Of a DNA stretch of 46,104 nucleotides, positions 24,686-46,104 are shown one piece after another. Positions within the stretch are counted from its first letter, which is position 1; the number at the start of each line of letters is the position of its first letter. This stretch comes from Rhodospirillaceae bacterium (GTDB lineage: Bacteria > Pseudomonadota > Alphaproteobacteria > TMED109): contig CABZPW010000003.1 of NCBI GenBank assembly GCA_902527765.1, forward strand, positions 1-46,104, read 5' to 3'. A model generated the notes under the pieces. The model ran no database searches, was not told the DNA's origin, and saw only the letters and a list, made by a program, of their open reading frames with translations. The position numbers and the translations under genes were made by a program.

Positions 24686-25084
24686 GTGGGTAAGCCCAAT
24701 TCAAACTCTAGTAACTTAATTATTACATTTAGCAATGATTTTTATAAATTTTATTATGCCCTTTCACTAGCATCTACTTTAAAAGCTACTGACAAAGATG
24801 TTAGTATATTTATTTCTGGTTATGCTTGTCATTTTATAAAAAAAAATTGGCAAGACTATGACAAAGAAGGTATTAATGAAAAATTAAAAAAAAAAAAAAT
24901 GGGATCAATCGAAGAAATGTTAGCATATTGCAAAGAGCTAGAAGTAGAAATTTTCTATTGTGAGTCTGCTATAGAGTTTTTAAATATTAATACTAAAGAA
25001 ATTACTAATTTAGTAAGCATAAAACCTAAAAGTATGTATTCAGTTTTAAACTCCTATAAGCAAGGAGAAATAATATTTATATAA
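24686..25084 (+). CDS. DsrE/F-like (DrsE_2) family protein
   Basis: The 132-residue protein begins at GTG, 1 nt after the moeB stop. It looks like the DrsE_2 group of DsrE-fold proteins: a first strand LIITFSNDFYKFYYALSLAS, a second DVSIFISGYACHF, a helix SIEEMLAYCKELEVEIFYC, and the motif YCESAIEFLNI which matches the family's Cys-x-x-Ser/Ala-x-x-(Leu/Met)-Gly/Asn-Ile. The cysteine after the IF strand (near residue 93) is the likely sulfur-handling residue. A 14-base A run (24886-24899) encodes part of a Lys-rich loop. Adjacency to a sulfur-carrier E1 suggests sulfur transfer, but that is inference. Its 3' end overlaps the convergent dehydrogenase gene by 8 nt. Confidence 0.72.
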   Translation: MGKPNSNSSNLIITFSNDFYKFYYALSLASTLKATDKDVSIFISGYACHFIKKNWQDYDKEGINEKLKKKKMGSIEEMLAYCKELEVEIFYCESAIEFLNINTKEITNLVSIKPKSMYSVLNSYKQGEIIFI

Positions 25085-26051
25085 TTCTATTTGGAGGGTT
25101 GTGCCCGTCAATAAATGTTTTAATATTTACGATTACTTTCTCTCCCATTTCTATTCTACCTTCAACTGTTGCTGATCCCATGTGAGGAATTAATATTGTA
25201 TTAGGTAAATCTAATAACTCGGTTTTAAGTTTTTTTTCCGCACCGAAAACATCTAAACCTGCACCTGCTATTTTTTTTTCTTTTAGCATTCTTACTAATG
25301 CCTTCTCATCAATAATCTCACTTCTAGAAGAATTAATTATATAAGAGTTAGGCATCATTAACTCTAGGATGTTTTCTGATATAATTCCTTTAGTTTTTTC
25401 TGTTAATGGGCAATTAATAGATACTATGTCCATCCTCTTAACCATTTCTCCTAAATTTTTCCAATAAGTTGCTTCATATGCTTCTTCTATTTGAGAAGGT
25501 AACTGGTTTCTATTATGGTAATGGATAGATATACCAAAAACTTTAGCTCTTTTAGCTATAGCTTGACCTATTCTTCCCATACCTATTATACCTAACCTTT
25601 TGCCATGAATTCTGCTTCCTAGCATATGCGTTGGACTCCAGCCATTCCATTTACCTTGAACTACTATTTTAGACCCTTCATAGATTCTTCTAGGCAGAGC
25701 TAGCATTAAAGTAAGTACTAAATCTGCTGTATCTTCCGCTAATAACCCAGGAGTATTAGTAACTATAATGTCTCTATTCTTTGCTGTTTTTAAATCAATG
25801 TGATCAATCCCCGCACCAAAATTAGCTATTAGCTTAGTTTTTTCGCTAGAACTTTCTATTATCTTTTTAGAAATGTTATCTGCTATTGAAGGTACTATGA
25901 TCTCATAATTTTTAAAAACATCTATCAACTCATCTTCTGTTAATAAAAAATCTTTTTCGTTCAAAGTAGTATCAAACAACTCCATCATTCTAGTTTCTAT
26001 TTTTTTAGGCAATCGCCTAGTTATAAAAACTTTAGGTTTTTTTTTATACAT
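25077..26051 (-). CDS. D-isomer 2-hydroxyacid dehydrogenase (glyoxylate/hydroxypyruvate reductase type)
   Basis: The 324-residue protein belongs to the D-2-hydroxyacid dehydrogenases and most resembles the GyaR/GRHPR group that reduces glyoxylate or hydroxypyruvate. Visible are KVFITRRLPKKIETRM at the start, NFGAGIDHIDL near residue 77, the NAD(P) motif GMGRIGQAIAKRA near 157, the catalytic Arg in SSRSEIIDEKAL near 240, the Glu in DVFGAEKKL near 270 and the His in PHMGSAT near 290. It ends 8 nt inside the convergent DsrE gene. Upstream is an excellent sigma-70-type promoter with a very short leader. Cofactor and exact substrate cannot be fixed by eye. Confidence 0.88.
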   Translation of the reverse strand: MYKKKPKVFITRRLPKKIETRMMELFDTTLNEKDFLLTEDELIDVFKNYEIIVPSIADNISKKIIESSSEKTKLIANFGAGIDHIDLKTAKNRDIIVTNTPGLLAEDTADLVLTLMLALPRRIYEGSKIVVQGKWNGWSPTHMLGSRIHGKRLGIIGMGRIGQAIAKRAKVFGISIHYHNRNQLPSQIEEAYEATYWKNLGEMVKRMDIVSINCPLTEKTKGIISENILELMMPNSYIINSSRSEIIDEKALVRMLKEKKIAGAGLDVFGAEKKLKTELLDLPNTILIPHMGSATVEGRIEMGEKVIVNIKTFIDGHNPPNRII

Positions 26052-26059
26052 AGTAGTTT

Positions 26060-26088
26060 ATTATAATTTAATTGTTAAAGTTGTTCAA
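26060..26088 (-). promoter_or_regulatory. Sigma-70-type promoter with palindromic -10 (divergent)
   Basis: On the minus strand TTGAAC (26088 to 26083) and TATAAT (26065 to 26060) are separated by exactly 17 nt and point at the dehydrogenase gene, whose ATG starts only 8 nt after the -10 box. Transcription would then begin within a few bases of the start codon. The octamer ATTATAAT (26060-26067) is its own reverse complement, so TATAAT is also present on the plus strand (26062-26067) in front of the M48 gene. The plus strand lacks a good -35. Confidence 0.65.
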
Positions 26089-26090
26089 TT

Positions 26091-27119
26091 ATGCATTATA
26101 AAATTTATATATTTATATTTTTAAGTTTTACCTTTTTAGTGTCATGTTCTACTAATGTTAATAAGTCCTATAATACAGAAATAAGTATAGCAGAAGAAAA
26201 AGAAATAATTGTCCAAAAAAAAATTTTAATTAATGAAATGGCTAAAGCCTCAATAAAACTTCACAAAATAACTTGGCCAATTCTTTTAGCCAATAAACAA
26301 AAGTGTAAAGATAATAGAAAAAAATCTTACGGTAGTCTTTTTGCAGATGTTAATGATTTACCAGAAGAGGATAAAAAAATATTTTTAACTCTTTTTAATA
26401 GTAATATTGATCCTAAATACTTTTATAAATATCACGTTGATGGTTTCCCTATAATACTCTCAATAGCTAAAGACAGCCCAGCATATAATGCTGGACTTTT
26501 AAAAAATGATATAATTTTAGAAATAAATGAAAAAAATACAAAAAACTTTAGAAAAAAATTGTTATTTATTCTAGAAAATAAGCAAAATTTAACACTTAAA
26601 ATATTAAGGGGAAAAGAAGAAATCAAAGTAAATATGTTAGGAATTCAAAGTTGTTCTTATAATGTACAAGTCCTTCCTTCAGGTTTTCCCAATGCATTTG
26701 CTGACGGAGAAAAAGTTTTTATTACCATGGCTGCTATAAAGTTGGCGCAAACAAATGATGAATTAGCTTTTTTAATAGGACATGAGTTAGCACATAATAT
26801 TTTACACTATAAAAACTTTGATGCCAATGAAGCAAACTTGCTTGCAATTGATTATTTAGATAAACCTAAAATTAGACAAATAAAAAGTATATTAGTCTGG
26901 TCTAATGAAAGCAGAGAAGTAGAAGCCGACATAGAAGGGATGCATTTAGCATTTAAAGCAGGGTTTTCTTTAGAAAATGTGAATGATTACTGGCGTAGAT
27001 TATCAGTATTTAACCCTGAATTGATCAAAAATTCTATCAATATCTATAAAAGCAATGCCTATAGAGCTGCTTTGATTAATAAAACACTTAAAAAATTAAA
27101 AGAACAAGCTAATGAATAA
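26091..27119 (+). CDS. PDZ-domain M48-family metalloprotease, lipoprotein
   Basis: The 342-residue protein starts with a lipoprotein signal peptide: a hydrophobic stretch ending in the lipobox LVSC (Cys at about residue 20), so it should be acylated and envelope-bound. A PDZ domain covers roughly residues 115-185 (ILSIAKDSPAYNAGLLKNDI). The zincin motif HELAH lies near residue 234 (LIGHELAHNILHY), and an EVEAD segment near 280 supplies the third zinc ligand typical of M48 peptidases. A role in outer-membrane quality control like BepA or LoiP is possible but inferred. Its end overlaps the downstream MFS gene by 8 nt; upstream it is divergent from the 2-hydroxyacid dehydrogenase. Confidence 0.88.
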   Translation: MHYKIYIFIFLSFTFLVSCSTNVNKSYNTEISIAEEKEIIVQKKILINEMAKASIKLHKITWPILLANKQKCKDNRKKSYGSLFADVNDLPEEDKKIFLTLFNSNIDPKYFYKYHVDGFPIILSIAKDSPAYNAGLLKNDIILEINEKNTKNFRKKLLFILENKQNLTLKILRGKEEIKVNMLGIQSCSYNVQVLPSGFPNAFADGEKVFITMAAIKLAQTNDELAFLIGHELAHNILHYKNFDANEANLLAIDYLDKPKIRQIKSILVWSNESREVEADIEGMHLAFKAGFSLENVNDYWRRLSVFNPELIKNSINIYKSNAYRAALINKTLKKLKEQANE

Positions 27120-37564: not shown

Positions 37565-40500
37565 CTAATTGCTAGCTATATTAGACAATAAATCTATTAC
37601 TATGGTTTTTATTTGAAAAGTTGGTATGCCGAAATTCTCTTGTACCGCCCCCATTGCTTTATCAATAACTACTGATTTATTAAATTCTGCGAAGCTAAAT
37701 GAATCTAAGTTTTTAGGTTTAATTAAAATACCTCCGTCTCTTACTTCTAAGTTATAGTTGTATGTTTTATTCTCAGATTCAATTTGAACTAGATAATCTA
37801 CAACTCCTATTATTTCTCCAAGCTTTTGAAAACTCTCATTATTTTTTTCTGGTGGTTTTAACCTATCTTCATCTTCATTATTTGAAAATTCATAAATTCC
37901 TTCTGTGGCAGGAACAAGATTAGGCCTTAAAACTATTACCTTTGCTTGTGATGAAATTACGCTATTTTTTCCAGCAGATATAGAACTACCTGAAATAGAA
38001 GTATTATTTAGATTACTATTAGATCCTCTTATAGAAATGTTACCACTACTATTACTTACATTTTCGTTCATACTTCTTATTGCTGTATATGTAGCAACTT
38101 GAGAAGGGGATCCATTACTAGTAGGCCTTGTACTTATAGTTAAAATATAAGTTGCACTTGCTGCATTATAGTTTGATGTAGCTGCGATAGAAGCAGTAAT
38201 TGTAGATGCTCCTGTTGATAATATAGAAACTGCTCCTGTTGAAGAATCTACACTAGCTATATTAGTATTACTAGAAGAATAGGCAATACTTAAACCACTA
38301 ATACTTGGAATTCCTGCTAAAGTATAACTTTCATCCGAATACTTTGATTGTGCACTTAAGCCACTAATAGTTGGAGAAGCTTTAGTTATATCTGCACCCG
38401 TAGAAGATTGGTCTGTTATAGAATAATTATTTATATCATCTCCTGAATAAGAAGAAGAAATTGTAACTAGCTTACTAGTTCCTACATTAGCATTATTAAA
38501 AGTTCCCGTGTAACTTCCAGAAAAACTATCCCCACTTACTAAACCTGCATATGAAATATTAGAAGTATCTAAAGTTGCAGAAGTTGTTGCATCATAGGTC
38601 TTATTTGAAGCAGTTAGTCCTGAAACTGTTAAAGTTCTAGCAGTAATGTTTGCTGTAGTACTAGATTGATCTGTTACTGTATAATTTCCAGAATCCACTC
38701 CTGAATAAGAAGCAGAAATTGATACTGTCTTACTGGTTCCTATATTTTTGTTATCAAAAGCTCCTGAAAATGCACCTCCTATATCATCTCCTGAAACCAA
38801 ACCAGAATAAGAAATATTGGATATATCTAAAGGAGCATTTGTATTTCCATCATAAGTTTTATTTGGTGCAGTTATACCTGAAACTGTTAATGATTTTCCT
38901 GTGATATTTGCTGTTGTAGTTTGGCCTGCACTAATAGTATAATTACTAGCCAAACCTCCGTTGCTTCCATCAGATAAGGTTATAGAATTTACGGTTACAG
39001 TTTTTCCTGTACCCACGTTTTTATTATTGAATGTTGATGATACGGATTGTCCTAAAGTTTCAGACCCAACTAAACCAGAAAATGAAAGTGTAGTAGTTGC
39101 AGTTGCATCTCCATTATAAGTTTTATTAGAAGATGATGTAGTAGCTGTTAGAGATTTTTTAACAATAGCTGCTGTAGTACTAGATTGATCTGTGACTGAA
39201 TAGTTTGACACATCATCTCCAGAATAAGTGGAAGAGATAGTAACAGTTTTACCACTTGCTACATTTGCATTATTAAAGGTCCCTGTATAAATTCCTGAAA
39301 AATCATCACCACTTACTAAGCCATTATATAAAATATTTGATGTTCCTAAAGTTGCAGTTGTAGAACCATCATAACTTTTATCTGAAGCAGTAATACTAGA
39401 GACCGTTAATGATCTAGCTGTAACATTTGCAATAGTACTAGATTGATTTGTAATAGAATAATTAGAAACATCACTTCCTGAATATGATGAAGATATCGTT
39501 ACTGTTTTTCCAGTCCCAATATTTTTATTATCGAAGGTTCCTGTAGCTGAAACTACAACATTATCACCACTTAATAGCCCTGAATATGATGCTGAAGTGA
39601 CAACCATCGTAGCATTTGTATTAGCGTCATACGTTTTATTAGAAGCTGTAATTCCAGAAACTGTTAAAGCTTTTGCTGTAATATTTGCCGTTGTAGTTTG
39701 GCCTGCACTAATAGTATAGTTACTTGCTAGTCCCCCATTGCTTCCATCAGATAATGTAATCGCACTTATTGTAACTGTTTTTCCTGTTCCAACATTTTTA
39801 TTATTAAATGCTGATGTTACAGATTGTCCTAAAGTCTCTGATCCAACTAAGCCAGAGAAAGTTAGAGACGAAGTTGCAGTTGCATTTCCATTATACGTTT
39901 TATTAGAAGCTGAAGCTGAAGCAGTTAAAGCCTTTTTAATAATTGTAGCTGTTGTACTAGATTGATCTGTGACTGAATAGTTTGACACATCGTCTCCAGA
40001 ATACGATGAAGATATCGTAACTGTTTTACCAGTTCCTACATTTTTATTATCAAAAGTTCCTGTATAAGAACCTGAAAAACTGTCTCCACTTACTAGTCCA
40101 GTATATAAAATATTTGATGTTCCTAAAGTTGCAGTTGTAGAACCATCATAACTTTTATCTGAAGCAGTAATACCAGAAACTGTCAATGCCTTAGCTGTAA
40201 TGTTCGCTGTTGTACTTGATTGATCTGTAATAGAGTAATTGGAAACATCGCTTCCAGAATATGAAGAAGATAAACTAACTGTTTTTCCTGTTCCTACATT
40301 TTTATTATTAAAAGTTCCCGTGGCAGCAACTACGAAATTATCACCGCTTACTAATCCAGAATAAGATGCTGAAGTAACATCAGTTGTAGCATTTGTATTT
40401 CCATCATACGTTTTATTAGATGCGGTAATACCAGAAACTGTTAAAGATTTTGCTGTAATATTTGCTGTTGTTGTTTGCCCTGCACTAATACTATAATTGC

Positions 40501-43500
40501 TTGCTAGACCTCCATTACTTCCATCAGATAAAGTTATAGCACTCACATTTACTGTTTTTCCCGTTCCTACATTTTTATTATTAAAAGCTGCTGTAACTGA
40601 TTGTCCTAATGTTTCAGAACCAATTAACCCTGAAAAAGATAATGTAACTGTTGCTGTAGTATTTCCATTATAAGTTTTATTAGATGCTGCAGCAGTTGCT
40701 GTTAGTGCTTTTGCAATTATATTTCCCGTAGTAGTGCTCTGGTCCGTTATAGTATAATTTCCTACATCAGCTCCTGAATAAGAAGAACTAATATTTACAG
40801 TTTTATTAGATCCTACATTTGCATTACTAAAAGTACCAGAAAATGAACCTGTAACATCATCTCCTTCAACTAGTCCTGAGTATGAGACATTTGAAGTATC
40901 TAGAGTTGCTGAATTATTTCCATCATAAGTCTTATTAGATGCTGTTATTCCCCTAACAGTAATGCCACTTACACTTGCTGTTATATTTGCTGTGGTAGTG
41001 GCTTGATCAGTAATAGAATAGTTTCCTACATCAGATCCAGAATAAGAGGAACTAATATTTACAGTCTTACCTGTTCCAACATTTTTATTATCAAAAGAAC
41101 CAGAAGCTGAAATTGATACATCATCTCCTGAAACTAATCCTGAATAAGATGTTCCTGTTAAGTCTAAAGTTACAACTGTATTTCCATCATACGTTTTATT
41201 GGAAGCTGTTATTCCTGAGACTGTCAAAGCCTTTGCTGTGATGTTTGCCGTAGTAGTTTGTCCTGAACTTATGCTATAATTACTAGCAACTCCCCCATTG
41301 CTACCATCAGATAAAGTTATAGAGTTTACAGTTACTGTTTTCCCTGTACCCACATTTTTATTATTGAATGTTGATGATACAGATTGCCCTAATGTTTCAG
41401 ATCCGACTAAGCCAGAAAACGAAAGTGTGGTAGTTGCGGTAGTATTGCCATTATAAGTTTTGTTAGAAGCTGTAGCCGACGCAGTCAAAGATTTTTTTAC
41501 TATACTGGCAGTAGTACTTGATTGACTCGTTACAGAATAATTTGATACATCATCACCTGAGTAAGATGAAGAAATAGTAACTGTTTTTCCTGCTCCCACA
41601 TTTGCATTGTTAAATGTGCCAGAATAAGATCCTGAAAAACTATCTCCATTAATTAAACCACTATATAATACATTTGATGTTCCTAAAGTTGCACTTGTAG
41701 AACCATCATAAGTTTTATCTGAAGCTGTAATTCCAGAAACTGTTAAAGCCTTTGCTGTAACATTAGCCGTAGTGCTAGCTTGATTAGTAATTGAATAATT
41801 AGAAACATCACTTCCAGAATAAGAAGAAGACAAAGTAACTGTCTTTGCAGTTCCTATATTTTTATTATCAAAAGTACCAGATACAGAAACAGTAACATTA
41901 TCTCCACTTACCAAACCAGAATATGAAACAGAACCGATATTAACAGTAGCATTTGTATTAGCATCATACGTTTTATTAGATGCAGTTATTCCTGAAACTG
42001 TTAAACTTTTTGCTGTGATATTTGCTGTTGTAGTTTGACCTGCACTTATAATGTAATTGCTAGCAAGCCCTCCATTGCTTCCATCAGATAAAGTTATAGA
42101 GTTTACAGTTACTGTTTTTCCTGTTCCTACATTTTTATTATTGAATGTTGATGATACGGATTGTCCTAAAGTTTCTGATCCTGCCAAGCCAGAAAAAGAG
42201 AGTGTAGTAGATGCAGTAGTATTTCCATTATATGTTTTGTTTGATGCACTTGCAGAAGCAGTTAATGCTTTTTTAATAATTGCAGCGGTAGTACTTGATT
42301 GATTAGTTATTGAATAATTAGATGCATCATCTCCTGAATAAGATGATGAAATCGTAACTGTTTTTCCTGTTCCTACATTTTTATTATCAAAGGTGCCTGT
42401 ATAAGAACCTGTAAAACTATCTCCATTTACTAAACCAGTATATAAAATATTTGATGTGACTAAAGTAGCGCTAGTGGATCCATCATAACTTTTATCAGAG
42501 GATGTAATACCTGAAACTGTTAACGCCTTAGCTGTAACATTAGCCGTAGTGCTAGCTTGATTAGTAACAGAGTAATTTGAAACATCGCTTCCAGAATATG
42601 AAGAAGATAAACTAACTGTTTTTCCTGTTCCTACATTTTTATTATCAAAAGTTCCTGTAGCTGCAACCACAAAATTATCACCACTTACTAATCCAGTATA
42701 TACCGCTGAAGTAACATCAGTTGTTGAATTCGTGTTACCGTCATACGTTTTATTAGAAGCTGTAATTCCAGAAACAGTTAATGCCTTTGCCGTAATATTT
42801 GCTGTTGTAGTTTGCCCTGCAGAGATTGAATAATTACTTGCTAGTCCTCCGTTGCTTCCATCAGATAAAGTAATTGCGCTTACAGTCACTGTTTTTCCTG
42901 TTCCCACATTTTTATTATTAAAAGCTGCAGTTACTGACTGCCCTAAAGTTTGTGAGCCAACTAATCCAGAAAAAGATAATGAAACCGTTGCTGTAGTATT
43001 TCCATTATAAGTTTTATTAGATGCTGAAGCATTTGCTGTTAGAGTTTTAGCAAAAATGTTTGCAGTAGTACTAGATTGGTTTGTTATAGAATAATTAGAA
43101 ACATCATCTCCGGAGTATGATGAAGATATCGTAACTGTCTTCCCATTTGCAACGTTTGCATTATTAAATGCACCCGTAGCCGCTAAAGTAAAATCATCTC
43201 CACTAACTAAGCCTGTATATATTGCCCCTGTCTTACTTATAGAAGCAGTTGTGCTTGCATCATAGGCTTTATTAGAGGCAGTTAGACCTGAAACAGTTAA
43301 AGATCTTGCAGTTATATTGGCTGTAGTACTAGATTGGTCAGTAATCACGTAATTATCAATATCATCTCCAGAATACGCACTACTAATGGTTACTGTTTTA
43401 CCAGTTCCTATATTTTTATTATCAAACGTTCCAGTAGGGGTAACAGTAAAACTATCACCTGAAACCAACCCAGAGTAAGTAACGCCTGAGGTACTTAAAG

Positions 43501-46104
43501 TTGCTCCTACAGAGCCATCGTAGGTTTTATTTACACCTGTAATTCCAGATACTGTCAAAGCTTTTGTAGTAATATCTGCTGTAGATGTTTGTCCAGAAGA
43601 AATAGAATAGTTACCTGCTAGTCCTCCATTAGAACCATTTGACAATGTAATAGAGTTAACAGTAACAGTTTTTCCAGTACCTACATTTTTATCTGAAAAA
43701 GTAGCTGAAACTGACTGACCAAGAGTTTCAGAGCCTATTAAACCAGAGAAAATCAAAGTAACAGTAGCAGTGGTTGTTGCATCATACGATTTATTAGAAG
43801 CAGATGCTGTAGCAGTAAGAGTTTTTTGCGTCACATTTGCCGTAGTAGATGCTTGATCGGTAATAGAGTAATTATTTACATCATCGCCTGCATATGAAGA
43901 TGTAAGAGTTACTGTCTTACCAGAACCTACATTGGCGTTATCAAATACTCCTGAAGCAGATACTGACAAACTTTCTCCGCTTACTATTCCTGAAAAAGAA
44001 GCACTGCTCACATCAACCGTTGCTGAAGTGGTTGCATCATAAGTTTTATTAGATGCTGTAATACCAGAGACAGTAATAGTCTTTGCTGTAATATTTGCTG
44101 TAGTAGTTTGTCCAGAACTAATACTATAGTTACTTGCTAAGCCTCCATTTGAACCATTTGATAATGTAATAGAGTTAACGGTAACAGTTTTTCCAGTACC
44201 TACATTTTTATCTGAAAAAGTAGCTGAAACTGACTGACCAAGAGTTTCAGAGCCTATTAAACCAGAGAAAGTTAATGTTACTGTTGCAGATGTTCCTCCA
44301 TCATAAGTTTTATTAGAGGCTGATGCGCTTGCTGTCAATGTTTTTGTATTTATTACAAGTGTGAAACTATCAGAAGCTGCATTATATTCATTTGTTTCTG
44401 CACCACTTGCTGTAATAGTAGTACTTCCTGCTGCTACCGAAGCTGATGCTCCTGATGATGAGTTAACTGTTGCTATACTAGTATCTGAACTTGAGTAAGT
44501 AATAGTACCATTAGTATTTTCTGTTAATGTATCTGCTGAAATTCCTGTATCACCGTAAGTTGCGCTTTTACTATCATTAGAAAAAGTAAATGTTGGTGTA
44601 GGTTTATTTACAATAGAACCATTATTGGTCTTGGTATTATGAATTAAAGTAGTATTCACATCCAAAGTGGCACCAGAGTTTACAGTTATGGATCCAGTTC
44701 CTACAGGTCCTCTAGATGCTGAACCAATTGAACCTGAACTTGAGCCTTCTAAGGATAAAGTGCCTGCTGCAACAGTAGTACCTCCTGAATAATCACTTGA
44801 GGAAGAAGATAAAACCAATCTTCCTAAACCTGATTTTGTTAATGATCCTGATCCTTTAATGATACCTGCATAAGTTAGAGTTGTTGAACCATCAACATCA
44901 ACAGTTCCATTACTACCTCCTAGTGATATTCCTCTGTTTGAACTCAAAGTAAAAGTAGATGAACTATTTAAAGTACCTCCGTTCAAAGTCAAATGTCCTG
45001 CTGTAGCAGAGCTAGGGGAAGATCCTAACCCTGAGTCTGCTGCAATACTTATAGTGCCAGCTGTTATTGAAGTAGCTCCTGTATATGTATTTTCCCCTGA
45101 TAAAGTTAATGTTCCTGATCCTGATTTTGTAAATAATCCAGCTCCAGATATTACACCTGAAATTGTATCATCCCCTGAGTCTCCTGTTGTTAAAGTAATA
45201 GAACTTGCAAGTTCTACAGCACCAGATCCACTTAATGACTGGATTGTATCCGTAGCATCCACATCATAAATTCCTGAATTTATTATATCCGTGCTATCAG
45301 AAAGCGTTCCTGTTAATTTAAGTGTTCCTGTACTAATTGTAGTATTTCCTGAAAATGTATTAGACCCTGATAAAGTTAAAATTCCAGTTCCTGCTTTGGT
45401 TAAAGACCCTGATCCAGAAATAACACCAGAAACTGTGTCATTTCCAGAATCACCGGTAGTTAAAATGATACTACTTGCTAATTCTACTCCTCCAGATCCA
45501 CTCAGTGATTGAATAGTATCGGTTGAGTCTACATCATATATACCCGAATTTACAACGTCGGTAGTATCAGCTAAAGTTCCTGATACTGTGATCTTTCCTG
45601 CACTAATAGTGGTGTCTCCTGTATATGTATTAGTACCAGAAAGAGTTAAAGTTCCTGATCCCACTTTAGTTAAAGAGCCTGCACCAGAAATTACTCCCGA
45701 AACAGTATCATTTCCTGAGTCTCCAGTAGTTAAAATTATTCCGCTTGCTAATTCTACTGCACCAGAACCACTTAGTGACTGAATAGTATCTGTTGCATCT
45801 ACATCATAAGTACCAGAATTTATTACATCAGTTGTATCTGCTAAGGTGCCGGAAACTTTAAAAATTCCTGCACTTACAGTAGTATCTCCTGTATATGTAC
45901 TTGCTCCTGTTAACAAAAATGTTCCTGTACCTGACTTTGTTAAATTAGAAGACCCAGTTATGACTCCTCCATAGGTAAGAGTAGTAGATGAGTCCGTATT
46001 AATAGTTCCGTCGCCGGTTAAAGTAATCCCCTTATTGGAACCAAGAGTAAAAGTTTCTGTCGTATTTAGCGTTCCTCCATTAAAAATTATATTATCTGCA
46101 TCTG
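37565..46104 (-). CDS. Giant YDG-repeat surface protein, partial (5' end outside window)
   Basis: One frame stays open from its stop at 37565 to the right edge, about 2,845 codons; its start is beyond the window. In protein order: autotransporter-type beta-strand repeats (about 44640-46104; units such as GSGSLTKAGTGILTLSGSNT), an Ig-like/MBG-like segment (about 44342-44610, TITYSSSDTSIATVNSSSG), 23 YDG domains (38378-44341; SNKTYDG, FDNKNVGTGKTV, NYSI), a second Ig-like segment (about 38125-38377, IAYSSSNTNIASVDSSTG) and a unique C-terminus of about 185 residues. I see no Cys and no Trp. No autotransporter beta-barrel or RTX repeat is visible. Similar proteins are adhesins secreted by two-partner or related systems; the secretion domain would be upstream, outside the window. 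The gene is clearly less AT-rich than its neighbours. Confidence 0.88.
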   Translation of the reverse strand, partial: DADNIIFNGGTLNTTETFTLGSNKGITLTGDGTINTDSSTTLTYGGVITGSSNLTKSGTGTFLLTGASTYTGDTTVSAGIFKVSGTLADTTDVINSGTYDVDATDTIQSLSGSGAVELASGIILTTGDSGNDTVSGVISGAGSLTKVGSGTLTLSGTNTYTGDTTISAGKITVSGTLADTTDVVNSGIYDVDSTDTIQSLSGSGGVELASSIILTTGDSGNDTVSGVISGSGSLTKAGTGILTLSGSNTFSGNTTISTGTLKLTGTLSDSTDIINSGIYDVDATDTIQSLSGSGAVELASSITLTTGDSGDDTISGVISGAGLFTKSGSGTLTLSGENTYTGATSITAGTISIAADSGLGSSPSSATAGHLTLNGGTLNSSSTFTLSSNRGISLGGSNGTVDVDGSTTLTYAGIIKGSGSLTKSGLGRLVLSSSSSDYSGGTTVAAGTLSLEGSSSGSIGSASRGPVGTGSITVNSGATLDVNTTLIHNTKTNNGSIVNKPTPTFTFSNDSKSATYGDTGISADTLTENTNGTITYSSSDTSIATVNSSSGASASVAAGSTTITASGAETNEYNAASDSFTLVINTKTLTASASASNKTYDGGTSATVTLTFSGLIGSETLGQSVSATFSDKNVGTGKTVTVNSITLSNGSNGGLASNYSISSGQTTTANITAKTITVSGITASNKTYDATTSATVDVSSASFSGIVSGESLSVSASGVFDNANVGSGKTVTLTSSYAGDDVNNYSITDQASTTANVTQKTLTATASASNKSYDATTTATVTLIFSGLIGSETLGQSVSATFSDKNVGTGKTVTVNSITLSNGSNGGLAGNYSISSGQTSTADITTKALTVSGITGVNKTYDGSVGATLSTSGVTYSGLVSGDSFTVTPTGTFDNKNIGTGKTVTISSAYSGDDIDNYVITDQSSTTANITARSLTVSGLTASNKAYDASTTASISKTGAIYTGLVSGDDFTLAATGAFNNANVANGKTVTISSSYSGDDVSNYSITNQSSTTANIFAKTLTANASASNKTYNGNTTATVSLSFSGLVGSQTLGQSVTAAFNNKNVGTGKTVTVSAITLSDGSNGGLASNYSISAGQTTTANITAKALTVSGITASNKTYDGNTNSTTDVTSAVYTGLVSGDNFVVAATGTFDNKNVGTGKTVSLSSSYSGSDVSNYSVTNQASTTANVTAKALTVSGITSSDKSYDGSTSATLVTSNILYTGLVNGDSFTGSYTGTFDNKNVGTGKTVTISSSYSGDDASNYSITNQSSTTAAIIKKALTASASASNKTYNGNTTASTTLSFSGLAGSETLGQSVSSTFNNKNVGTGKTVTVNSITLSDGSNGGLASNYIISAGQTTTANITAKSLTVSGITASNKTYDANTNATVNIGSVSYSGLVSGDNVTVSVSGTFDNKNIGTAKTVTLSSSYSGSDVSNYSITNQASTTANVTAKALTVSGITASDKTYDGSTSATLGTSNVLYSGLINGDSFSGSYSGTFNNANVGAGKTVTISSSYSGDDVSNYSVTSQSSTTASIVKKSLTASATASNKTYNGNTTATTTLSFSGLVGSETLGQSVSSTFNNKNVGTGKTVTVNSITLSDGSNGGVASNYSISSGQTTTANITAKALTVSGITASNKTYDGNTVVTLDLTGTSYSGLVSGDDVSISASGSFDNKNVGTGKTVNISSSYSGSDVGNYSITDQATTTANITASVSGITVRGITASNKTYDGNNSATLDTSNVSYSGLVEGDDVTGSFSGTFSNANVGSNKTVNISSSYSGADVGNYTITDQSTTTGNIIAKALTATAAASNKTYNGNTTATVTLSFSGLIGSETLGQSVTAAFNNKNVGTGKTVNVSAITLSDGSNGGLASNYSISAGQTTTANITAKSLTVSGITASNKTYDGNTNATTDVTSASYSGLVSGDNFVVAATGTFNNKNVGTGKTVSLSSSYSGSDVSNYSITDQSSTTANITAKALTVSGITASDKSYDGSTTATLGTSNILYTGLVSGDSFSGSYTGTFDNKNVGTGKTVTISSSYSGDDVSNYSVTDQSSTTATIIKKALTASASASNKTYNGNATATSSLTFSGLVGSETLGQSVTSAFNNKNVGTGKTVTISAITLSDGSNGGLASNYTISAGQTTTANITAKALTVSGITASNKTYDANTNATMVVTSASYSGLLSGDNVVVSATGTFDNKNIGTGKTVTISSSYSGSDVSNYSITNQSSTIANVTARSLTVSSITASDKSYDGSTTATLGTSNILYNGLVSGDDFSGIYTGTFNNANVASGKTVTISSTYSGDDVSNYSVTDQSSTTAAIVKKSLTATTSSSNKTYNGDATATTTLSFSGLVGSETLGQSVSSTFNNKNVGTGKTVTVNSITLSDGSNGGLASNYTISAGQTTTANITGKSLTVSGITAPNKTYDGNTNAPLDISNISYSGLVSGDDIGGAFSGAFDNKNIGTSKTVSISASYSGVDSGNYTVTDQSSTTANITARTLTVSGLTASNKTYDATTSATLDTSNISYAGLVSGDSFSGSYTGTFNNANVGTSKLVTISSSYSGDDINNYSITDQSSTGADITKASPTISGLSAQSKYSDESYTLAGIPSISGLSIAYSSSNTNIASVDSSTGAVSILSTGASTITASIAATSNYNAASATYILTISTRPTSNGSPSQVATYTAIRSMNENVSNSSGNISIRGSNSNLNNTSISGSSISAGKNSVISSQAKVIVLRPNLVPATEGIYEFSNNEDEDRLKPPEKNNESFQKLGEIIGVVDYLVQIESENKTYNYNLEVRDGGILIKPKNLDSFSFAEFNKSVVIDKAMGAVQENFGIPTFQIKTIVIDLLSNIASN
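38378..40708 (-). repeat. Nine-YDG-domain block, copy 2
   Basis: This is the second copy of the nine-domain block, tandem to copy 1 at 40709-43045. The offset between equivalent points is about 2,331-2,337 bp, which implies a block duplication after the triplet had formed, rather than domain-by-domain growth. Confidence 0.8.
40709..43045 (-). repeat. Nine-YDG-domain block, copy 1
   Basis: Three successive A-B-B triplets (nine domains, 2,337 bp) match, triplet by triplet, the next three (38378-40708, 2,331 bp). Shared triplet-specific features: FVVAATGTF in the first triplet of each block, DANTNAT with FDNKNIGT and NNANV...IVKK in the second, GNY and SATLDTSN in the third. The extra two residues VSGITV near 40973 occur only in this copy. 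Confidence 0.8.
45089..45898 (-). repeat. Three 270-bp passenger-type beta-strand repeats
   Basis: Three tandem copies of exactly 90 codons each begin with TYTGDTT or TFSGNTT and contain SGTLADTTDV, DTIQSLSGSG and ILTTGDSGNDTVSGVISG. They match the autotransporter-associated beta-strand repeat (PATR) pattern, where SLTK(A/S)G(S/T)G precedes LTLSGxNTYTG. A fourth, diverged unit follows at 45088 downward. The copies are close in sequence at protein level. Confidence 0.85.

What the first reader, a model, noticed from the sequence alone, without database searches (positions are those of the whole stretch)
26052..26090. Bidirectional promoter with palindromic -10 and nearly leaderless transcript
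The 39-nt divergent spacer contains ATTATAAT (26060-26067), identical on both strands, so one -10 box can serve both genes. Toward the dehydrogenase a TTGAAC box is spaced by exactly 17 nt, and the ATG begins 8 nt after the -10, implying a start of transcription at or within a few bases of the start codon. Symmetric -10 elements giving divergent transcription have been described in bacteria; a leaderless metabolic gene here would be notable.
Basis: partly seen in the sequence, partly recalled or inferred. Interest (0 to 1): 0.5.

Follow-up and report, generated by a model that had tools for sequence, protein, structure and literature searches.

The report
Shared promoter that changed its partner
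A 39-base gap between two opposite genes in a marine bacterium holds a conserved, near-symmetric promoter that probably serves both genes and may start one mRNA right at its start codon; the promoter looks older than the gene pair, because a chromosome rearrangement seems to have put a new gene on one side of it.

Summary
The sequence is as described. Both start codons are pinned by nearby in-frame stops. By sequence alone the motifs are weak evidence: shuffled copies of this AT-rich spacer hold ATTATAAT in 2.5% and a -35/TATAAT pair in 1.9% of cases. Comparison makes the case. A TTGAAC/TATAAT pair with an overlapping -10 on the other strand is kept in 8 of 9 orthologous spacers, although fourfold sites are only 34-57% identical between the main lineages. 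The form TATAATA/TATTATA is steadier than the perfect palindrome, which one genome (L004) lacks.

The leaderless reading is plausible but local. The -10 lies 8 nt from ATG in four genomes of this genus, 16 nt in a sister genus. Lineage-wide, TATAAT peaks 18-22 nt before starts, without clear excess at leaderless distances; no lineage -35 was detectable.

In 24 of 30 relatives the dehydrogenase diverges from an SH3 gene; M48 is there only in four genomes of this genus. The two genes have exchanged loci, consistent with one inversion cutting near their start codons. No transcript was measured.

The parts
26052..26090 (.). 39-nt divergent spacer, proposed bidirectional promoter
26060..26067 (.). 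ATTATAAT palindrome; with flanking base T26059 gives minus TATAATA / plus TATTATA
   Evidence: TATAATA/TATTATA read by eye in the 8 spacers that hold TATAAT; full palindrome in 7 of those 8 (not L004)
26060..26065 (-). proposed -10 (TATAAT) of the dehydrogenase gene, 8 nt before its ATG
26083..26088 (-). proposed -35 (TTGAAC) of the dehydrogenase gene, 17 nt from the -10; also the 5' flank of the partner's start codon (GTTCAATT-ATG)
   Evidence: invariant in 8 of 9 orthologous spacers
26062..26067 (+). proposed -10 (TATAAT) of the M48 gene, 23 nt before its ATG
   Evidence: near the lineage's preferred -10 position
26059..26064 (+). alternative overlapping -10 (TATTAT) of the M48 gene, 26 nt before its ATG
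   Evidence: kept in 8 of 9 loci (by eye sequences)
26051..26054 (-). predicted transcription start zone of the dehydrogenase mRNA (A26054, C26053 or A26051; leader 3, 2 or 0 nt)
   Evidence: inference from -10 to start distance; not measured
26071..26074 (+). predicted transcription start zone of the M48 mRNA (A26071 or G26074; leader about 17-20 nt)
   Evidence: inference; not measured
25077..26051 (-). D-isomer specific 2-hydroxyacid dehydrogenase (glyoxylate reductase-like), 324 aa
   Evidence: PF00389/PF02826; best NCBIfam match glyoxylate reductase 278.6 bits, below its cut-off of 455; closest solved chain by E-value glyoxylate reductase 5aov
26091..27119 (+). M48-family metallopeptidase with PDZ domain and lipoprotein-like N-terminus, 342 aa; recent divergent partner
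   Evidence: PF01435, PF17820
26081..26103 (+). 23-nt stretch TTGTTCAATT-ATGCATTATAAAA across the M48 start, identical to the 5' end of the SH3 gene of G014: likely remnant of the former partner
   Evidence: L031 against L061
27112..28344 (+). MFS transporter that moved together with the M48 gene
   Evidence: PF11700/PF07690

Best explanation
The spacer is a compact sigma70-type bidirectional promoter: one symmetric -10 region (TATAATA/TATTATA) is read by RNA polymerase in either orientation. Toward the dehydrogenase it probably starts RNA 0-3 nt before the ATG (leaderless or nearly so); toward the other side it gives a leader of about 17-20 nt. The two orientations exclude each other sterically, so the genes should share and compete for polymerase. 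The promoter predates the present pair: it served a dehydrogenase/SH3 pair, and in this genus a chromosomal rearrangement, most simply one inversion with break points near the start codons of the SH3 and M48 genes, put the M48-MFS unit under it and moved the SH3 gene to the M48 gene's old place behind tRNA-Gly. Shown: the sequence, its conservation, the exchanged gene order. Inferred: transcription in both directions, the start sites, the inversion as the mechanism.
For: TTGAAC...TATAAT with an overlapping opposite-strand -10 in 8 of 9 orthologous spacers; each meets the rule in 1.0-3.1% of dinucleotide shuffles. Fourfold sites of the dehydrogenase are 34-57% identical between the main lineages, yet AATTGAAC and TATAATA are unchanged in those 8. 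The 8-nt gap is the same in L001-L004. Divergent genes of the lineage show a TATAAT peak 18-22 nt before the start (21 seen, 7.7 expected, z 5.4) and for related words also at 23-28 (48 against 29.4, z 3.8), next to which the M48-side -10s fall (gaps 23 and 26). SH3 is the divergent partner in 24 of 30 and M48 in 4 of 30 loci; in G007, G010 and G014 M48-MFS lies next to tRNA-Gly and a thioredoxin-like gene, in G002 the SH3 gene does. A 23-nt stretch across the M48 start equals the SH3 gene's 5' end of G014.
Against: No transcript data. L008 fails the strict rule. The -35 to -10 distance changes (17 to 15). No -35 enrichment in the lineage. TATAAT at gaps 5-10: 12 seen in 252 genes, about 9 expected. 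Symmetric -10s are only weakly and not specifically enriched in divergent spacers: TAT[AT]ATA 38 of 87 against 24.8 (z 3.5), but control palindromes reach z 2.4 there, and in co-directional spacers a control exceeds it (3.3 against 2.7). The SH3-behind-tRNA junction was seen in one genome only (G002), and no contig holds both break points. The M48 of G007, still behind tRNA-Gly, begins MNYK, so part of the MHYK likeness may be native to M48 and the break point is not fixed to the base.
Confidence: 0.55

Rival explanations
1. The TATAAT block is the promoter of one direction only, the M48 (formerly SH3) side; the dehydrogenase is transcribed from a -10 inside the partner's 5' end (minus TATAAT 26100-26095 or CATAAT 26093-26088) and has a leader of about 30-37 nt.
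For: The M48-side gap (23-26 nt) fits the lineage's preferred -10 distance, the dehydrogenase-side gap of 8 does not. No -35 signal in the lineage supports the TTGAAC argument. The upstream minus TATAAT exists in L001, L002, L006, L007 and L009 (sequences).
Against: That upstream hexamer is TGTAAT in L003 and L005 and TACAAT in L004, and absent in L008, while the spacer TATAAT does not vary in the 8 loci. It lies 43 nt from the ATG, outside the peak.
Confidence: 0.25
2. Two ordinary promoters that happen to overlap because the genome is streamlined and its spacers are very AT-rich; symmetry is a by-product of composition and has no regulatory meaning.
For: TATAAT turns up on either strand in 28% of shuffles of this spacer; short divergent spacers are common (31 of 87 at 39 nt or less); the excess of symmetric -10 words is modest and not specific.
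Against: The block is kept in several lineages that are saturated at fourfold sites, which composition alone does not explain.
Confidence: 0.3
3. GTTCAATT before the partner's ATG is kept for translation of the partner gene, not as a -35 of the dehydrogenase.
For: It abuts the partner start codon in 8 of 9 loci and keeps that place although its distance to TATAAT changes; no -35 signal in the lineage.
Against: It has no Shine-Dalgarno character and a known translational role is not apparent; it reads TTGAAC on the other strand at 15-17 nt from the -10.
Confidence: 0.25
4. The change of partner arose by separate gene transfers or by loss and insertion rather than by one inversion.
For: Assemblies are fragmentary (57% complete for the window's genome), and no contig holds both junctions.
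Against: Whole gene blocks changed sides reciprocally: PurH and following genes stay with M48-MFS as in G007, and the genes behind SH3 stay with it as in G010.
Confidence: 0.15

Closest known systems
Bidirectional promoters of E. coli and Salmonella with symmetric -10 elements (PMC12825309, Introduction read; PMC10268837, Results read)
   Same: One symmetric -10 on both strands between divergent genes; most common distance of opposite start sites 18 bp, pairs defined at 7-25 bp; predicted here 17-21 bp.
   Different: Here no start site is measured; one direction is predicted leaderless, and the divergent partner changed while the promoter stayed.
Leaderless mRNAs of Alphaproteobacteria, e.g. 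[quoted passage not shown]
   Same: ATG start 8 nt behind the -10, no Shine-Dalgarno sequence.
   Different: Not measured here; not a visible habit of this lineage; the sister genus has a predicted leader of about 8-11 nt.
SH3-domain gene divergent from a 2-hydroxyacid dehydrogenase, the usual arrangement in Alphaproteobacteria
   Same: Same dehydrogenase gene and same spacer block.
   Different: M48 peptidase in place of the SH3 gene in this genus.

Membership tests
bidirectional promoter (symmetric -10) | overlapping -10 elements on both strands | tested here: met
   8 of 9 orthologous loci
bidirectional promoter (symmetric -10) | divergent start sites 7-25 bp apart | not testable with these tools
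   predicted 17-21 bp; no transcript data; definition
bidirectional promoter (symmetric -10) | RNA made in both directions | not testable with these tools
   none
leaderless mRNA | transcription start at or within about 5 nt of the start codon | not testable with these tools
   predicted leader 0-3 nt from the 8-nt gap
leaderless mRNA | ATG start that cannot be moved upstream | tested here: met
   in-frame stop ends 6 nt before the ATG
leaderless mRNA | arrangement kept in relatives | tested here: inconclusive
   8-nt gap in L001-L004, 16 nt in L005-L007 and L009; L004 has the ATG out of frame as assembled
sigma70 promoter | -35 and -10 hexamers 16-18 nt apart | tested here: inconclusive
   17 nt in L001-L004, 15 nt in L005-L007 and L009, L008 fails; no -35 signal in the lineage

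The most novel reading that the evidence does not exclude
A ready-made bidirectional promoter with its start-codon region acted as a unit of exchange: one inversion with break points near two start codons gave two secreted-protein genes each other's promoter and first codons, while a near-leaderless divergent gene kept its own.
Probability: 0.35. Interest if true: 0.55.

Novelty: new member of a known kind. Interest (0 to 1): 0.38.

Why it matters
If true, it is a natural promoter swap: the same divergent promoter drives a different gene after a rearrangement, with the old locus as a built-in control. It lets one ask whether a bidirectional promoter ties its two genes together functionally or only by place, and it gives a case of a leader shrinking to nothing in a streamlined ocean bacterium. 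The promoter architecture itself is ordinary.

Tried and rejected
Rejected as proof: consensus matches alone. Tried without gain: a search for sigma70 dyads with E. coli weights in divergent genes of G000, G001 and G010 (10, 6 and 5 seen against 8.3, 6.4 and 6.2 in shuffles at threshold 8); a search for a -35 upstream of 124 -10-like words at gaps 16-30; Rfam on window 24000-46104 (no match); tRNA genes in the window (none); naming the lineage as AEGEAN-169 (AG-919, AG-430, AG-390, TMED93 and SP81 not found in the main text of PMC10308909; no paper holds AG-919-G06). Papers on promoter exchange by inversion: searches listed 1 and 2 papers; titles and abstract beginnings look unrelated, none was opened. 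Leaderless with bidirectional promoter: one search listed 3 papers, none opened. Considered and put aside: that the palindrome itself is the conserved element (L004 lacks it). Not done: structure prediction, fold searches and scans of viral or metagenome collections, as they do not bear on a promoter.

Full report
Observation. The described elements are in the sequence at the stated places. ATTATAAT 26060-26067 gives TATAAT on both strands, minus TTGAAC lies 17 nt from minus TATAAT, and 8 nt separate that -10 from the dehydrogenase ATG. Stops in frame end 6 nt (dehydrogenase) and 12 nt (M48) before the start codons, so both starts are firm. Shuffles of the spacer give the palindrome in 2.5% and the -35/-10 pair in 1.9% of cases: suggestive at most, since a genome has many such spacers.

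Conservation. I aligned the dehydrogenase-upstream region of the nine closest orthologues (L001-L009, order of kinship). Eight of nine hold TTGAAC followed by TATAAT and an overlapping -10 on the other strand; L008 does not by the strict rule, though it holds TTGTAC-17-TATACT over a plus-strand TATAAT, 8 of 12 matches, which I noticed afterwards. Fourfold-degenerate sites of the dehydrogenase are 34-57% identical between the main lineages and 88-90% between close pairs, in the 12 pairs computed, so unchanged blocks in the spacer point to selection. The lineages share ancestry, so the shuffle fractions of 1.0-3.1% per locus should not be multiplied as if independent. What stays is TATAATA facing TATTATA; the perfect palindrome fails in L004. 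The gap from -10 to ATG is 8 nt in L001-L004 and 16 nt in L005-L007 and L009. L004 carries an A run of 11 that puts its ATG out of frame as assembled.

Lineage background. I called genes in stretches of G000 (with the window), G001 and G010 (440, 398 and 371 kb) and examined 252 divergent genes with spacers of 10-299 nt. Exact TATAAT is in excess 18-22 nt before the start (21 against 7.7, z 5.4) and weakly at 29-35 (19 against 11.5, z 2.4). At gaps 5-6, 7-8 and 9-10 it is 4, 5 and 3 against 3.0, 2.9 and 3.2. Genes within operons (485) show no such peak. So leadered starts of roughly 11-16 nt are the visible norm and the dehydrogenase is an exception, while the M48-side elements (gaps 23 and 26) lie at or near the norm. 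No -35 signal appears around 124 -10-like words, and sigma70 dyads with E. coli weights are not enriched. Shine-Dalgarno-like words are found before 22 of 100 divergent genes of G000 by a loose test, 18 by a strict one. Symmetric -10 words are in modest excess in divergent spacers, but control palindromes come close, and in co-directional spacers one exceeds them.

Leader over the family. By eye, the five loci of genus g5 (L013, L014, L015, L017, L020) have AAGG or GAGG shortly before the dehydrogenase ATG, while the nine loci L001-L009 have none within 20 nt. With the gaps above this suggests that the leader shrank on the way to this genus; it is an impression, not a tested trend.

Change of partner. 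Two further genomes of the genus (G004, G005) show no close orthologue of the dehydrogenase. In G007, G010 and G014 the M48-MFS pair stands beside tRNA-Gly and a thioredoxin-like gene; in G002 the SH3 gene stands there. The flanking blocks moved along: PurH and its followers with M48-MFS as in G007, the genes behind SH3 as in G010. Two new junctions that exchange sides in this way fit one inversion. The SH3 gene was found in one of the six genomes of the genus (G002), the others being 54-67% complete, and a close thioredoxin-like neighbour only in G002, so the second junction rests on one assembly.

Break point. The window reads TTGTTCAATT-ATGCATTATAAAA across the M48 start; G014 reads the same 23 letters across its SH3 start. 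M48 proteins of g6 begin MMRIYLF or MKVYLN, those of this genus MHYK or MHCK. Against a sharp placing, the M48 of G007 begins MNYK. I place the break between the end of the spacer and about codon 5.

Mechanism. RNA polymerase with sigma70 would bind the -10 region in either orientation. From the usual 7-nt distance I predict starts at 26051-26054 (minus) and 26071-26074 (plus), 17-21 bp apart for the main candidates, inside the range reported for bidirectional promoters, where 18 bp is most common. Those papers report that such promoters have low basal activity and that competition appears when one direction is activated. All of this is inference for the present locus.

Verdict. The architecture is a new member of a known kind. 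The partner exchange is the more interesting part.

Noticed in passing
window 37565-46102, minus: A frame of at least 2845 aa that runs off the contig end, with 23 YDG-domain stretches and 5 PATR repeats and 258-270 bp tandem repeats: a giant repeat protein, probably a surface or autotransporter-like adhesin.
   Followed up: partly
L004 1494-1511 (G001): A run of 11 A right behind the dehydrogenase ATG puts the start out of frame; a sequencing error, a real frameshift or a slippage site. The window has 9 A there.
   Followed up: no
window 25077-25084 and 27112-27119: Gene ends overlap by 8 nt: the DsrE-like gene with the dehydrogenase (convergent), and M48 with the MFS gene (same direction).
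   Followed up: no
L037 2519-3758 (G010): The MFS gene is split into two frames (242 and 169 aa), by damage or an assembly error.
   Followed up: no
L036 (G014): The M48 match holds one TAA stop, possibly another damaged copy.
   Followed up: no
L221 6177-6690 (G002): The SH3 gene begins about 20-40 nt behind tRNA-Gly, as M48 does in sister genera; the gene may be co-transcribed with the tRNA.
   Followed up: no
divergent genes of G000, G001, G010: TATAAT peaks 18-22 nt before start codons without a detectable -35, a hint that -10-only promoters with short leaders are the rule in this lineage.
   Followed up: partly
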